DNA from: Lactiplantibacillus paraplantarum | Lineage (GTDB): Bacteria; Bacillota; Bacilli; Lactobacillales; Lactobacillaceae | DNA length: 64,000 nt | Reading direction: 5' to 3' | Assembly: GCF_003641145.1 (NCBI RefSeq) | Contig: NZ_CP032744.1 | Coordinates: 496,001-560,000 of the forward strand | Shown: piece after piece, positions 44,601 to 48,525 of the stretch | Numbering within the stretch: the first letter of the stretch is position 1 | Layout: the number at the start of each line of letters is the position of its first letter | Notes under the pieces: generated by a model | Databases searched by the model: none | Seen by the model: the letters and a program-made list of their open reading frames with translations, nothing else | Told to the model about the DNA's origin: nothing | Translations under genes and position numbers: made by a program

Positions 44601-44855
44601 CATGATTAAAAGGTGTCAATTTTCAAGGCCAAAAGCAGCCAACTTAGGTTCGCTGGAAAAAGTTCGAGTTAGCGTAAACTTTTTTGTGAGTACGCCCTAC
44701 GCCGACTTCCAGGCATTTCTGCCAATTGCCGGAACGTGGTGGACACAGATTTAAGCCGCAACTCACGTCTTAAATACTGGCCTTTCACTAACCAAGCACA
44801 GGAAGCTTATTGCTGACGAACAGGAATCTATCTAAGTTGGCACCTTTTAATCATG
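44601..44855. repeat. Structured inverted-repeat element, short copy (255 bp)
   Basis: The ends are inverted repeats: CATGATTAAAAGGTGTCAA at 44601 and the complement of CATGATTAAAAGGTGCCAA at 44837-44855. No reading frame fits. Hairpins at 44635-44655, 44657-44684 and 44749-44775 have counterparts in the long copy at 47693-47710, 47711-47739 and 47804-47830. The second and third differ in sequence on both strands of the stem while staying paired. The block 44707-44797 is about 85 percent identical to 47762-47851. It lies between dut and radA and holds most of that gap. Confidence 0.85.
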
Positions 44856-44956
44856 ACGCATGATAGTGTGACGCGGATGAAGTAATTATTTTAGAAATCC
44901 CAATACCCAACATTAATTAAATTGATATGTTGGCGGAGAAATGGAGGCGTGTGTAC

Positions 44957-46336
44957 GTGGCAAAAGCAAAAACGCAGTTTGTTTGTTCCAACTGCGGCTA
45001 TTCGACACCACGGTACTTAGGGCGGTGTCCGAACTGTGGTGAATGGAATACATTAACTGAAGAACATTTTGATACGAAGCCGGATCGCAAGTCCCGCGTG
45101 AGCTTTGCTGGTAAGTCGGCTAAGCCACAACGACTTAAAGAAGTTTCGTTGACAAAGACGCCCCGAGTCAAGACTAAGTTAAAAGAATTTAACCGGGTCT
45201 TGGGTGGCGGAGTCGTACCGGGGTCACTTGTTTTAATCGGTGGTGATCCTGGAATTGGAAAGTCAACGTTGTTACTGCAAGTTTCTGGGCAATTGGCCGA
45301 GACGGGTGGCTCTGTGTTGTACGTGACTGGTGAAGAAAGTGCCTCACAAGTTAAGATGCGGGCGGACCGGTTGGCTGTTAGCAGCGAAGATTTTTATCTT
45401 TATCCTGAGACTGATATGTCGAATATTCGTTCAACGATTGAATCGACGCATCCAGAATTTGTGGTCATTGATTCGGTGCAAACGATGCAAGAACCTGATA
45501 TGGACTCGGCAATTGGTTCGGTGTCACAAATTCGTGAGATTACGGCCGAGTTACTTCAGATTGCAAAGACTAACGGCATCACTATTTTTATTGTCGGGCA
45601 TGTGACTAAGGGCGGGGCCATTGCTGGGCCTAAGATCTTAGAACATATGGTTGATACCGTTTTGTACTTTGAAGGTGATTTACACCATACGTACCGCATT
45701 TTACGGGCAGTCAAGAATCGATTCGGGTCAACGAATGAACTGGGGATTTTTGAAATGCGGACGGGTGGTTTATATGAAGTGGCCAATCCGTCAGAGATCT
45801 TCTTGGAAGAACGTCTGAAGGATGCCACGGGTTCCGCCATTGTTGTTTCAATGGAAGGGACGCGACCAATCTTAGTAGAAGTTCAAGCGCTGGTCACACC
45901 AACGGTCTTTGGTAATGCGAAGCGGACGGCGAGTGGCTTAGATCATAATCGGGTTTCGCTAATTATGGCGGTACTGGAAAAACGGGCTAGTCTGATGTTG
46001 CAAAATCAAGACGCGTACTTAAAAGCGGCTGGTGGGGTCAAGTTGGATGAACCGGCAATTGACTTGGCGATTGCCATCAGTGTGGCTTCTAGTTATCGGG
46101 ACCAGCAAACTCGCCCAAGTGACTGTTTTGTTGGTGAAGTGGGCTTGACTGGTGAAATTCGTCGAGTTAACCGAATTGAGTCACGGGTTGGTGAAGCAGC
46201 CAAACTTGGATTTAAGCGAGTCTTTATTCCAAAGAATAATCTACAAGGCTGGGATATACCAACCGGGATTGAAGTAATTGGGGTCGCAACGTTAAAAGAA
46301 GCACTCCAATTAGCATTACAACAACCAAATTATTAA
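44957..46336 (+). CDS. radA: DNA repair protein RadA, 459 aa
   Basis: RadA/Sms is a RecA-like ATPase/helicase that helps process recombination intermediates and supports natural transformation in some Firmicutes. A zinc ribbon (CSNCGYSTPRYLGRCPNCG) opens the protein. The Walker A motif GGDPGIGKST is near residue 95, the KNRFGSTNELGIFEM motif near 255, and a Lon-like C-terminal domain follows (VGEVGLTGEIRRV). The start is GTG at 44957, nine bases after GGAGG. PIN/TRAM and gltX follow as in many Firmicutes. Confidence 0.97.
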   Translation: MAKAKTQFVCSNCGYSTPRYLGRCPNCGEWNTLTEEHFDTKPDRKSRVSFAGKSAKPQRLKEVSLTKTPRVKTKLKEFNRVLGGGVVPGSLVLIGGDPGIGKSTLLLQVSGQLAETGGSVLYVTGEESASQVKMRADRLAVSSEDFYLYPETDMSNIRSTIESTHPEFVVIDSVQTMQEPDMDSAIGSVSQIREITAELLQIAKTNGITIFIVGHVTKGGAIAGPKILEHMVDTVLYFEGDLHHTYRILRAVKNRFGSTNELGIFEMRTGGLYEVANPSEIFLEERLKDATGSAIVVSMEGTRPILVEVQALVTPTVFGNAKRTASGLDHNRVSLIMAVLEKRASLMLQNQDAYLKAAGGVKLDEPAIDLAIAISVASSYRDQQTRPSDCFVGEVGLTGEIRRVNRIESRVGEAAKLGFKRVFIPKNNLQGWDIPTGIEVIGVATLKEALQLALQQPNY

Positions 46337-46351
46337 AAAGGGGCTGACGCC

Positions 46352-47515
46352 ATGAAGAAGTTAACGGTGCGACTAGTATTTATCGTTGTGGGGGGCACGC
46401 TGGGATTAACCTACCTGCCATTCTTATGGGCGATGATTTTGTCGCAACCAAATGTGTTGTTGAACAACGTTTTCACCAACTTTTTGTTGGGAGCGTTGCT
46501 TTTATGGGTTCTGTCATTGTTCTTAGCAAACGCTGCTGTACGGTTAGTAGATCGGGTTGAGAAGAACTTGTCCAAGCAAAATCCAATGACACTTTTATTT
46601 GGCAGTATTGGATTTATTATTGGGTTATTGATCGCGGTTCTGATTTCGCAATTATTTAATCGTAGTCCATTATTCTTATTGAACACGGTCGTCCCAATTA
46701 TTTTGATGTTGTTCTTTGGTTACATCGGTGCTCGAGTCGGTACGACCCGAATCGATGAATGGCGGAAAGTATTTAACTTCCGTCGTCGTGAAAAGGAAGC
46801 GAGTCCGGAAATTACGGATGCTCAGCCAGATCAAAATTATCATCATTATAAGATCTTGGATACAAACATTTTGATTGACGGGCGCATTTATGACTTGGTC
46901 AAGACTGGTTTTCTAGAAGGGACGTTATTAGTACCGAACTTTGTCTTGTATGAATTACAGTACATTGCGGATTCGGCCGACAGTATCAAACGTGTCCGTG
47001 GACGGCGCGGGTTGGACATTTTAAATAAGTTACAAAATGAAAATATTATTCCGGTGGAAATGTACGAGGGCGACTTCGAAGATATTCCAGAAGTTGACAG
47101 TAAGCTCATTCAATTAGCCAAAAAAGTTAATGGGGTGATTGTCACGAATGATTACAACTTGAACAAAGTGATTGAATTCCAAAATGTCCAAGTTCTTAAT
47201 ATTAATCAGCTGGCCAAATCATTGAAGCCACGAGTAATTCCAGGTGAAGAAATGAATGTCATGGTCGTTAAAAATGGTAGTGAGCGCCAACAAGGGGTCG
47301 GCTATTTAGACGATGGGACGATGGTCGTGGTGGAAGATGGGAAGTTCTACATCAATGAAAAAGTCGATGTAGTCGTAACGAGTGCCTTACAAACGGATGC
47401 TGGCCGAATGATTTTTGCCCGGCTAGCGCACGCTAATCGCGGTATCCCAGATCATGCTGAAGATAGTAATAAGCATAACAATAATCACAATAACAATCGA
47501 AACAACCGGCGTTAA
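46352..47515 (+). CDS. PIN/TRAM-domain membrane protein (YacL family), 387 aa
   Basis: Four N-terminal membrane helices (residues about 1-130) are followed by a PIN nuclease domain starting KILDTNILIDGRIYDLVKTGFLEG, with further acidic residues in LADSADSIK-like and VTNDYNLNK segments, and by a TRAM domain (about 300-360). It ends in an Asn/His-rich low-complexity tail (NKHNNNHNNNRNN). Probably a membrane-anchored RNase; no target is known. It follows radA by 15 bases, a typical order in Firmicutes, and is closed by a terminator. Confidence 0.93.
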   Translation: MKKLTVRLVFIVVGGTLGLTYLPFLWAMILSQPNVLLNNVFTNFLLGALLLWVLSLFLANAAVRLVDRVEKNLSKQNPMTLLFGSIGFIIGLLIAVLISQLFNRSPLFLLNTVVPIILMLFFGYIGARVGTTRIDEWRKVFNFRRREKEASPEITDAQPDQNYHHYKILDTNILIDGRIYDLVKTGFLEGTLLVPNFVLYELQYIADSADSIKRVRGRRGLDILNKLQNENIIPVEMYEGDFEDIPEVDSKLIQLAKKVNGVIVTNDYNLNKVIEFQNVQVLNINQLAKSLKPRVIPGEEMNVMVVKNGSERQQGVGYLDDGTMVVVEDGKFYINEKVDVVVTSALQTDAGRMIFARLAHANRGIPDHAEDSNKHNNNHNNNRNNRR

Positions 47516-47532
47516 GCGGTTGAACAATCACG

Positions 47533-47573
47533 AAGCGGTAGTAGCTCATCTGTTGGGCTGCTACCGCTTTTGT
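47533..47573 (+). terminator. Terminator of radA-yacL
   Basis: AAGCGGTAGTAGCTC pairs with GGGCTGCTACCGCTT (wobble allowed) and TTTTG follows. Confidence 0.82.
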
Positions 47574-47652
47574 TAATCCTTAGATTGGGACACCAATAGA
47601 AGTATCCTTGGCTTACTATATTATGCACTATACTAGTGGGTTTTAGGATGAG

Positions 47653-48525
47653 CCATGATTAAAACGTGCCGATTAGTTAAAGTCAAAAGCGGCCAGCTTA
47701 AGCCCGCTGGAAATAGTTCTGGTTGGCGTAGAACTGTTTGGTTGGTGCTTCCTAGGCCGACCTCCAGGCATTTCGGCCAATTGCCGGAACGTGGTGGGCA
47801 CAGATTTGAGCCGAAGTGCATGTCTCAAATGCTGGCCTTCCACTAACCAAGCCAAAAACGCTTGCCAAGTGGAATTTCACCACTTGGCATTGGCCGAAAC
47901 GCCTTCCAGTCGGGACAGTATTCGAATGGCAGACATAGGCGTACCCAATTTTTGATAAACTGATTGTTGTTTTTCACAAACAGAAATTTTGTCATTTGAC
48001 TGTCAGCTTGCACTGATATTATGACAGATTAACGGTTTCTCGATAACCATACTAACTATTGAGAAGTCTAAAAATGGTCAATGATAACTTAACGTTCAAT
48101 TGAAGTCCCAGTATCAAGATATTCAACAACTAATTGCACCAAGTTAAGTGGTCGTTCATTAGCCATTCGAGTGGCTTACCGAAATGTGTTCGGTGCCACT
48201 AAAGCCTGTGCTTGCTACGCCAACGAACTAATGCCAAGACCGTATTAATCCGTTGGCTGGGCAATGCTCGGCTTCAATTCGTGGCCCCTCGCACTCTTGA
48301 GACTGGAGGGGCTGGGTGACAATGCTCAGTAGCCAAATTATTCTTAGCTGGAAGTGGGTTGCTTCCGGCTTAGAATAAGACTCGTATTTGAGATGACGCG
48401 GGTTGGGCGTTAGCTCAAATCGACGTCGGCTTACGTTCCAGCAATTGTCACCCAGCCCCGGAGGTCGGACTAGGACGAACGCGTGCTGACGAACAATAAG
48501 CTAAAATCGGTACGTTTTAATCATG
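47653..48525. repeat. Structured inverted-repeat element, long copy (873 bp)
   Basis: It has near-perfect terminal inverted repeats: CATGATTAAAACGTGCCGAT at the left and the complement of CATGATTAAAACGTACCGAT at the right. The first 200 bases resemble the short copy at 44601, and the last 45 bases resemble its right end. In between lie about 630 bases absent from the short copy. No reading frame with coding character is seen. Hairpins include TGCCAAGTGG/CCACTTGGCA (47863-47889), AGTGGC...GCCACT (48169-48199) and a three-way junction at 48308-48459. It fills the gap before gltX. Confidence 0.82.
48284..48459 (+). ncRNA. Possible structured RNA: three-way junction with alternative pairing
   Basis: A perfect 16-bp stem (48308-48323 with 48444-48459) encloses two hairpins: 48340-48354/48362-48376 (13 of 15 paired) and 48386-48392/48414-48420 (7 bp, inner GACGC/GCGTT). 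GCCCCTC (48284-48290) can instead pair with GAGGGGC (48306-48312), which uses the same 5' strand as the 16-bp stem. Two exclusive folds recall a switch or a structured ncRNA. Transcription is not shown. Confidence 0.5.

What the first reader, a model, noticed from the sequence alone, without database searches (positions are those of the whole stretch)
44601..48525. Dispersed structured element with inverted ends and covarying hairpins (two copies)
Two intergenic elements, 255 bp (44601-44855) and 873 bp (47653-48525), share terminal inverted repeats of about 20 bases and a common block of about 200 bases. In that block the same hairpins form in both copies. Stem 44657-44664/44677-44684 corresponds to 47711-47720/47730-47739, paired in each copy though sequences differ. 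Stem ATTTAAG/CTTAAAT (44749, 44769) corresponds to ATTTGAG/CTCAAAT (47804, 47824), a compensatory A-T to G-C change with equal 13-base loops. No transposase gene is present. Selection on an RNA structure inside a mobile-looking element would be unusual; I do not recognise it as a known family.
Basis: partly seen in the sequence, partly recalled or inferred. Interest (0 to 1): 0.78.

Follow-up and report, generated by a model that had tools for sequence, protein, structure and literature searches.

The report
Mobile element with paired folded modules
The two intergenic repeats are copies of a transposon-like element without genes that carries mirror-image copies of a folded module; the module recurs in many lactobacilli with its shape kept while its sequence changes, and my searches found no description of it.

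Summary
Both repeats belong to one non-coding element family with dozens of copies in this genome. Family ends lie about 30 bp further out and fit IS982-family inverted repeats. Nine of 34 copies have exact edge repeats of 8-13 bp, and relatives lack the insertion at both loci tested. So these are IS982-type MITEs. The unusual part is the cargo: an inverted pair of a ~165-nt folded module. A covariance model of it matches 69 of 301 Lactobacillaceae genomes, 12 of 40 genera, as single copies or convergent pairs (48 of 50 neighbouring arm pairs); IS982 ends were absent at 27 of 27 such loci checked. Covariation is strong: 17 column pairs significant under a tree-based null, all inside the 55-pair structure. 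Wobble-type changes favour one strand, suggesting a strand-specific fold in RNA or ssDNA. No Rfam match. The 873-bp copy has both modules; the 255-bp copy is a deletion derivative with a truncated left one. What the module does is unknown; I favour a REPIN-like way of spreading.

The parts
47623..48555 (+).
47623..47674 (+). Left terminal inverted repeat of copy 2 (degenerate outer end ATGCACTATACTAG..., then CATGATTAAAACGTGCCGATT)
48505..48555 (-). Right terminal inverted repeat of copy 2 (outer end, read inward: ACGCGTTGTGTTAATTAAT...)
47746..47914 (+). Left folded module ('arm') of copy 2, read inward on the + strand
48300..48478 (-). Right folded module of copy 2, an inverted homologue of the left one (144 of 238 alignment columns identical over a somewhat wider stretch)
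47915..48299 (.). Middle of copy 2; query positions 531-648 are missing from a subset of copies
44568..44881 (+).
44693..44808 (+). Truncated left folded module of copy 1 (ends at copy-1 position 208); the right module is absent
44834..44856 (-). Right inner terminal repeat of copy 1

Best explanation
Each locus is a non-autonomous transposable element whose ends are of the IS982 type, so an IS982 transposase supplied in trans most likely moves it (inferred from the ends, the edge repeats and the empty sites; transposition was not assayed). Inside the ends sit two inverted copies of a conserved ~165-nt folded module. The module is not tied to this MITE. In other Lactobacillaceae it is scattered between genes as single copies or convergent pairs, and in one genome (G144) pairs carry different ends and 4 of 6 examined sit in terminator-like stems. 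The most likely reading is that the module is a REPIN-like unit: a strand-specific fold, in single-stranded DNA or RNA, that a trans-acting factor recognises and that keeps the unit replicating or tolerated. In this species' lineage the pair was captured between IS982 ends and then spread as a MITE. Shown: copy number, ends, edge repeats, empty sites, inverted pairing, distribution, covariation. Inferred: the IS982 source of mobility, the greater age of the module, the capture order. Not shown: the recognising factor and any function of the fold.
For: Ends: a conserved outer end ACGCATTGTGCTAGTTATT lies outside the motif in 65 aligned ends. IS982 copies in G016, G004 and G015 carry ACGCATTGTGCTAGTTAAT or ACGCGTTGTGCTAGTTAAT. 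It fits the published IS982 end 5'-AC(N)6T(N)5TT (PMC7335449, passages). Mobility: 9 of 34 copies with both ends have an exact edge repeat of 8 bp or more, against 1.3% of 1122 mismatched flank pairs. The L097 site is empty in G015 over a gapless 583/600 match. The L103 site is continuous across the junction in G012, G016, G015 and G007, and no element end motif lies in the first three or in L435. Module: left and right arms are homologous in 6 of 6 copies tested; 69 of 301 family genomes; 48 of 50 adjacent arm pairs convergent. Structure: 28 of 49 pairs in A1, 44 of 51 in A2, 34 of 37 in A3 show double compensatory changes; the tree-based test gives 17 significant pairs, all in the structure. 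Strand: inward WC>AC events exceed WC>GU events 33:5, 23:8 and 81:36.
Against: The IS982 copies whose ends match best (L205, L206, L208, L222, L228) are all broken by stop codons. The intact ones seen have ends that differ at one or more positions; the only one found in the window's own genome, on the 49-kb contig C4, ends ACCCGTTGTGCTAGTT, 2 of 16 positions off. The element shares only about 21 bp of end with IS982. 25 of 34 copies show no exact edge repeat of 8 bp or more, and neither window copy has a clear one. Exact repeats run to 13 bp, longer than the IS982 values I saw (0-9); some include end bases. At the L097 site, 5 of the 17 differences of G015 fall within 10 bp at the target itself. 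No obvious partner gene recurs near the arms: the largest ORF cluster, in 14 of 77 loci (3 of the 77 without a model match), looks by recollection like ABC transporters. Over all pairs of the full-length copies the GU:AC bias is weak (140+65 against 120+52 events). A3 scored in the other orientation gave 76:39. Nine G287 copies show no shared flanks, edge repeats or stems, so their mobility is unexplained. 38 of the 55 structure pairs are not individually significant.
Confidence: 0.66

Rival explanations
1. An ordinary IS982 MITE whose interior is neutral. Perfect hairpins are kept by a mutational process (template switching within palindromes), not by selection.
For: Watson-Crick to Watson-Crick changes greatly outnumber intermediates (407 against 81 and 36 events in A3), as one-step repair of a palindrome would give. 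G-U pairs are rare (3.5% of cells read outward). IS982 MITEs are known (PMC9769881, passages).
Against: Unpaired positions such as GGAAC are also conserved across the six genera in A3. The wobble bias is strand-specific. Copies without these ends keep the fold in other genera.
Confidence: 0.16
2. A transcribed structured non-coding RNA carried by a mobile element, acting as an RNA (ornate large RNA or trans-acting RNA).
For: Very stable fold (z -13.3, 20 shuffles), strong covariation, wobble tolerance on one strand.
Against: No Rfam match. A promoter scan of 44420-48740 is at chance level (6 found, 8.2 expected). The two arms sit on opposite strands, so one transcript holds one arm sense and one antisense. 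DNA folding gives an equally extreme z (-14.1).
Confidence: 0.14
3. A bidirectional transcription-shielding or terminator-like element kept because it insulates neighbouring genes; the pair works in either orientation.
For: Pairs are rare between divergent genes (3 of 37, against 55 of 197 arm-free intergenic gaps) and more common between convergent ones (11 of 37 against 34 of 197) (ORFs by my own script). In G144, 4 of 6 pairs lie in terminator-like stems.
Against: Avoiding promoters is expected of any dispersed element. Single arms show at most a slight lean in direction (10 against 6; 11 against 8). In the window's genome 0 of 34 and in G287 0 of 9 sit in such stems.
Confidence: 0.13

Closest known systems
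IS982-family MITEs (MITECca01, PMC9769881, passages seen)
   Same: IS982-type terminal inverted repeats, no transposase, high copy number, mostly intergenic
   Different: Up to about 1 kb here instead of about 240 bp. The interior carries an inverted pair of conserved folded modules and shares no sequence with the IS982 elements held beyond about 21 bp of end.
REPINs / BIMEs (paired REP sequences with RAYT transposases, PMC3116915, abstract seen)
   Same: Singlets and inverted doublets scattered between genes, predicted to fold as ssDNA or RNA
   Different: Module of about 150-165 nt with a branched fold, not a short palindrome (20-40 bp, start of abstract of PMC3733652 in the listing). No partner gene was found; RAYT was not searched for by family.
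GOLLD, ROOL and OLE ornate RNAs (PMC12286853, search listing only)
   Same: Large, highly structured RNAs; GOLLD is named for Lactobacillales
   Different: No Rfam family of any kind matched here; organised as inverted pairs inside a mobile element
BOX/RUP/SPRITE repeats of pneumococcus (PMC3049150, search listing; PMC10969869, passage; otherwise recalled)
   Same: Dispersed structured intergenic repeats
   Different: Not compared by sequence here

Membership tests
IS982-derived MITE | Ends of the form 5'-AC(N)6T(N)5TT, matching an IS982 relative | tested here: met
   Family consensus ACGCATTGTGCTAGTT fits; same or near-same ends on (broken) IS982 copies in G016, G004, G015
IS982-derived MITE | No transposase gene inside | tested here: met
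   No ORF of at least 80 aa overlaps either copy
IS982-derived MITE | Short target duplication (variable; 8 bp for ISLpl4) | tested here: met
   9 of 34 copies with an exact repeat of 8-13 bp, against 1.3% expected at 8 or more; the two window copies have none that is clear
IS982-derived MITE | Empty site in relatives | tested here: met
   2 of 2 loci tested, L097 and L103; the window copies were not tested, as no orthologous stretch of G015 was held
IS982-derived MITE | Matching intact parental IS in the same genome | tested here: inconclusive
   One intact IS982 on contig C4, end matches at 14 of 16 positions; best-matching ends elsewhere are on broken copies
REPIN/RAYT | Inverted doublets as the unit | tested here: met
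   48 of 50 adjacent arm pairs convergent, 2 tandem, 0 divergent
REPIN/RAYT | Short (20-40 bp) palindrome | tested here: not met
   Module about 150-165 nt with two hairpins on a shared stem
REPIN/RAYT | Associated RAYT (Y1 HUH) transposase | not tested
   No family search was run; an all-ORF clustering of 77 loci showed no obvious partner
Any Rfam RNA family | Covariance-model match | tested here: not met
   E up to 5 on 44560-48560; one hit, inside the radA-like ORF; 20 loci of other genomes

The most novel reading that the evidence does not exclude
The module is an undescribed class of strand-specific folded mobile nucleic acid of the Lactobacillaceae. It exists as single copies and almost always convergent pairs, and it has been picked up independently by different end types (IS982-type ends in the window's lineage, GGTTCTTTCTTAAG ends inserted into terminator loops in G144). 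A conserved trans-acting factor would recognise the fold itself.
Probability: 0.4. Interest if true: 0.82.

Novelty: new variant of a known kind. Interest (0 to 1): 0.6.

Why it matters
It would add a large repeat family to a food- and gut-relevant bacterial family, with dozens of copies in this genome. It would also offer a clean case of a nucleic-acid fold, rather than a protein or a sequence, being conserved across mobile elements with different ends. Whether the folded form is RNA or single-stranded DNA can be tested directly.

Tried and rejected
Tried without result: Rfam at gathering score and at E up to 5. ISL3 as parent of the G144 ends: ISL3 copies there begin GGCTCTTTGTCAAATC, only partly similar to GGTTCTTTCTTAAGTT, so this stays open; in 22 named loci those ends gave only scattered hits at up to 3 mismatches. 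L10 leader as a control for wobble rates: only 11 predicted pairs, too few. Orientation preference of single arms: none clear. A partner gene near the arms: none. Phages and viral contigs: no match (by blastn with copy 2; by one exact pattern). Orthologous sites of the two window copies: not among the G015 stretches held. Pfam on one ORF beside L161: nothing. Paper searches listed nothing that describes the module. PMC2267715 and PMC1590033 were searched only for 'plantarum', 'lactobacillus' and one or two further short terms; the single hit in each is L. johnsonii. PMC10969869 was searched for five terms; 'lactobac' does not occur.

Rejected: a chance pair of hairpins. A known Rfam RNA. Three outlier genomes (Spirochaetes, Holophagaceae, Arthrobacter) as true members: no model match; three Lactobacillaceae loci of the same list (L345, L360, L377) have none either.

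Selections made: A1 used 40 of 128 arms. Full-length sets A and C, 52 and 20 copies, were filtered by length. A2 is fitted to the model. A3 is 58 arms that I picked, from six genera; 4 near-identical rows were dropped. One search drew 301 genomes from a larger group, kept at most 9 scored matches per genome and used strict filters.

Changed after checking against the calls: the best-matching IS982 ends are on broken copies, so the confidence of the best explanation went from 0.68 to 0.66 and of the neutral-MITE rival from 0.15 to 0.16.
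Full report
WHAT IS THERE. The + strand of the long copy folds far better than shuffled sequence (z -13.3 as RNA; -14.1 as DNA), and the reverse strand does too (-11.9); each used 20 shuffles. In the whole genome (G000) the 255-bp copy has 40 matches and the 873-bp copy 84 matching pieces, both from 40 scored candidates. 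16 of 21 genomes of the genus, G000 included, match the long copy.

ENDS AND MOBILITY. Aligning 65 ends shows conservation reaching about 30 bp beyond the CATGATTAAAA motif, to ACGCATTGTGCTAGTTATT. An IS on the 49-kb contig C4 of the same genome, probably a plasmid, has ends ACCCGTTGTGCTAGTT around a 286-aa transposase that is IS982 family by NCBIfam (235.6 bits, cut-off 130). IS982 copies in related genomes carry ACGCATTGTGCTAGTTAAT or ACGCGTTGTGCTAGTTAAT, but those copies are broken by stop codons; the intact ones seen end in variants one or more positions off. The family end fits the published IS982 rule AC(N)6T(N)5TT (PMC7335449, passages seen). Beyond about 21 bp of end the element shares nothing with the 30 IS982 loci, apart from weak matches to one flank (L227). 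Of 34 copies in G000 with both ends, 9 have an exact edge repeat of 8-13 bp, against 1.3% of 1122 mismatched flank pairs at 8 or more; the other 25 do not, as would be expected of old copies. The site of the L097 copy (repeat GGTTCAGCG) is empty in G015: 583 of 600 positions match without a gap across the junction, although 5 of the 17 differences fall within 10 bp at the target itself. The L103 site is continuous across the junction in G012, G016 and G015, where the match begins about 44 bp to its left and 176-252 bp of unrelated sequence without element ends lies further out; it is also continuous in G007. An IS982-derived MITE is already known from Cardinium (PMC9769881, passages), so this layer is a known kind.

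THE CARGO. The left part of the long element on the + strand and the right part on the - strand are homologous (W2: 144 of 238 alignment columns identical; score 122.8 against a maximum of 79.3 in 200 shuffles; the five further copies tested likewise). Each arm is a ~165-nt fold: a long stem, then two hairpins. The 255-bp copy keeps only a truncated left arm and the right end.

DISTRIBUTION. A covariance model of the arm matches 69 of 301 Lactobacillaceae genomes in 12 of 40 genera. An exact core pattern finds it in named Lactiplantibacillus, Levilactobacillus, Companilactobacillus, Lacticaseibacillus, Schleiferilactobacillus and Pediococcus (list cut at 80 of 120). The model confirms 152 arms in 74 of those 80 loci; the three loci from outside the family and three from within it have no model match. 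Copy 2 also matches parts of 25 plasmids (18 Lactiplantibacillus, 7 Ligilactobacillus salivarius), none over 36% of the query, with no listed gene under the match in a gene table that is incomplete. There is no match in the phage collection. Of 50 adjacent arm pairs, 48 are convergent, 2 tandem, none divergent. At 27 of 27 loci from other genomes (six genera, this one included) no IS982-type outer end flanks the arm at up to 2 mismatches. In G287 copies have sharp limits at the fold itself. In G144 pairs have other ends, GGTTCTTTCTTAAGTT; three of six have 7-10 bp edge repeats and 4 of 6 sit inside terminator-like stems. Among the 80 named loci, G144 arms resemble one of Companilactobacillus futsaii best.

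STRUCTURE UNDER SELECTION. Double compensatory changes that keep the pair occur at 28 of 49 pairs within the close set A1, 44 of 51 in A2 (an alignment fitted to the model) and 34 of 37 in the sequence-based A3. In A1, 97.3% of cells pair, against 80.5% on shuffling and 32-47% on sliding; one of the five measures, further pair types, was not above the shuffles (39 against 48.4). My own R-scape-like test with a tree-based null gave 17 significant column pairs of 10,329, all inside the 55-pair structure; the other 38 structure pairs were not individually significant. Changes to G-U and to A-C are not equal. In the inward orientation A-C exceeds G-U in events 33:5, 23:8 and 81:36, or 76:39 for A3 scored in the other orientation. 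In full-length copies the right arm has 45 G-U against 11 A-C on the + strand, and the left arm 23 against 33. All point to the outward strand as the folded form, in RNA or ssDNA. Against a simple RNA reading: G-U pairs are only 3.5% of cells, the bias over all pairs is weak, and no promoter excess was seen. The L10-leader control was too small to calibrate this.

CONTEXT. In the named loci most arms lie between predicted genes; 2 clusters lay inside an ORF. Convergent pairs are rare between divergent genes (3 of 37, against 55 of 197 arm-free gaps). Single arms show no clear preferred direction, and no gene family recurs near them in a telling way. This looks like a dispersed element tolerated away from promoters, not a cis-regulator of particular genes.

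INTERPRETATION. The mobile shell in this species is an IS982-type MITE. The conserved folded pair inside is a separate, widespread and probably older module whose organisation resembles REPINs (PMC3116915, abstract), but it is far larger, and no RAYT was looked for by family. What recognises or uses the fold is not known.

Noticed in passing
L101:1467-1616 (G000): A 149-bp minimal copy with both ends and a clean edge repeat TACTGAATA; either the modules are not needed for insertion or they were lost afterwards.
   Followed up: partly
L191, about 905-960 (G000): A tiny element of about 55 bp made of little more than two IS982-type ends facing each other.
   Followed up: no
L161/L162 (G139, G237): Two genomes of another genus have one model match each, close to the Lactiplantibacillus type and in the same gene neighbourhood; a possible horizontal transfer.
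   Followed up: partly
L252, L254, L255, L258 (G144): Pairs with GGTTCTTTCTTAAGTT-type ends inside terminator-like stems. The transposase behind these ends is unidentified.
   Followed up: partly
L422 (NZ_CP078130.1) and 14 other plasmid records: The same match (query 25-339, 74.5% identity) recurs in 15 Lactiplantibacillus plasmids; in the one opened it lies near a metal-transport ATPase.
   Followed up: no
L063, L072, L099, L103: Copies with two different inner end sequences on the two sides (AAATGGC type and AACGTGCC-like type), suggesting recombination between subfamilies.
   Followed up: no
window 57867-57980, 2119-2282 and 21718-21802: An L10 leader (RF00557) and three tRNAs, ordinary.
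   Followed up: no
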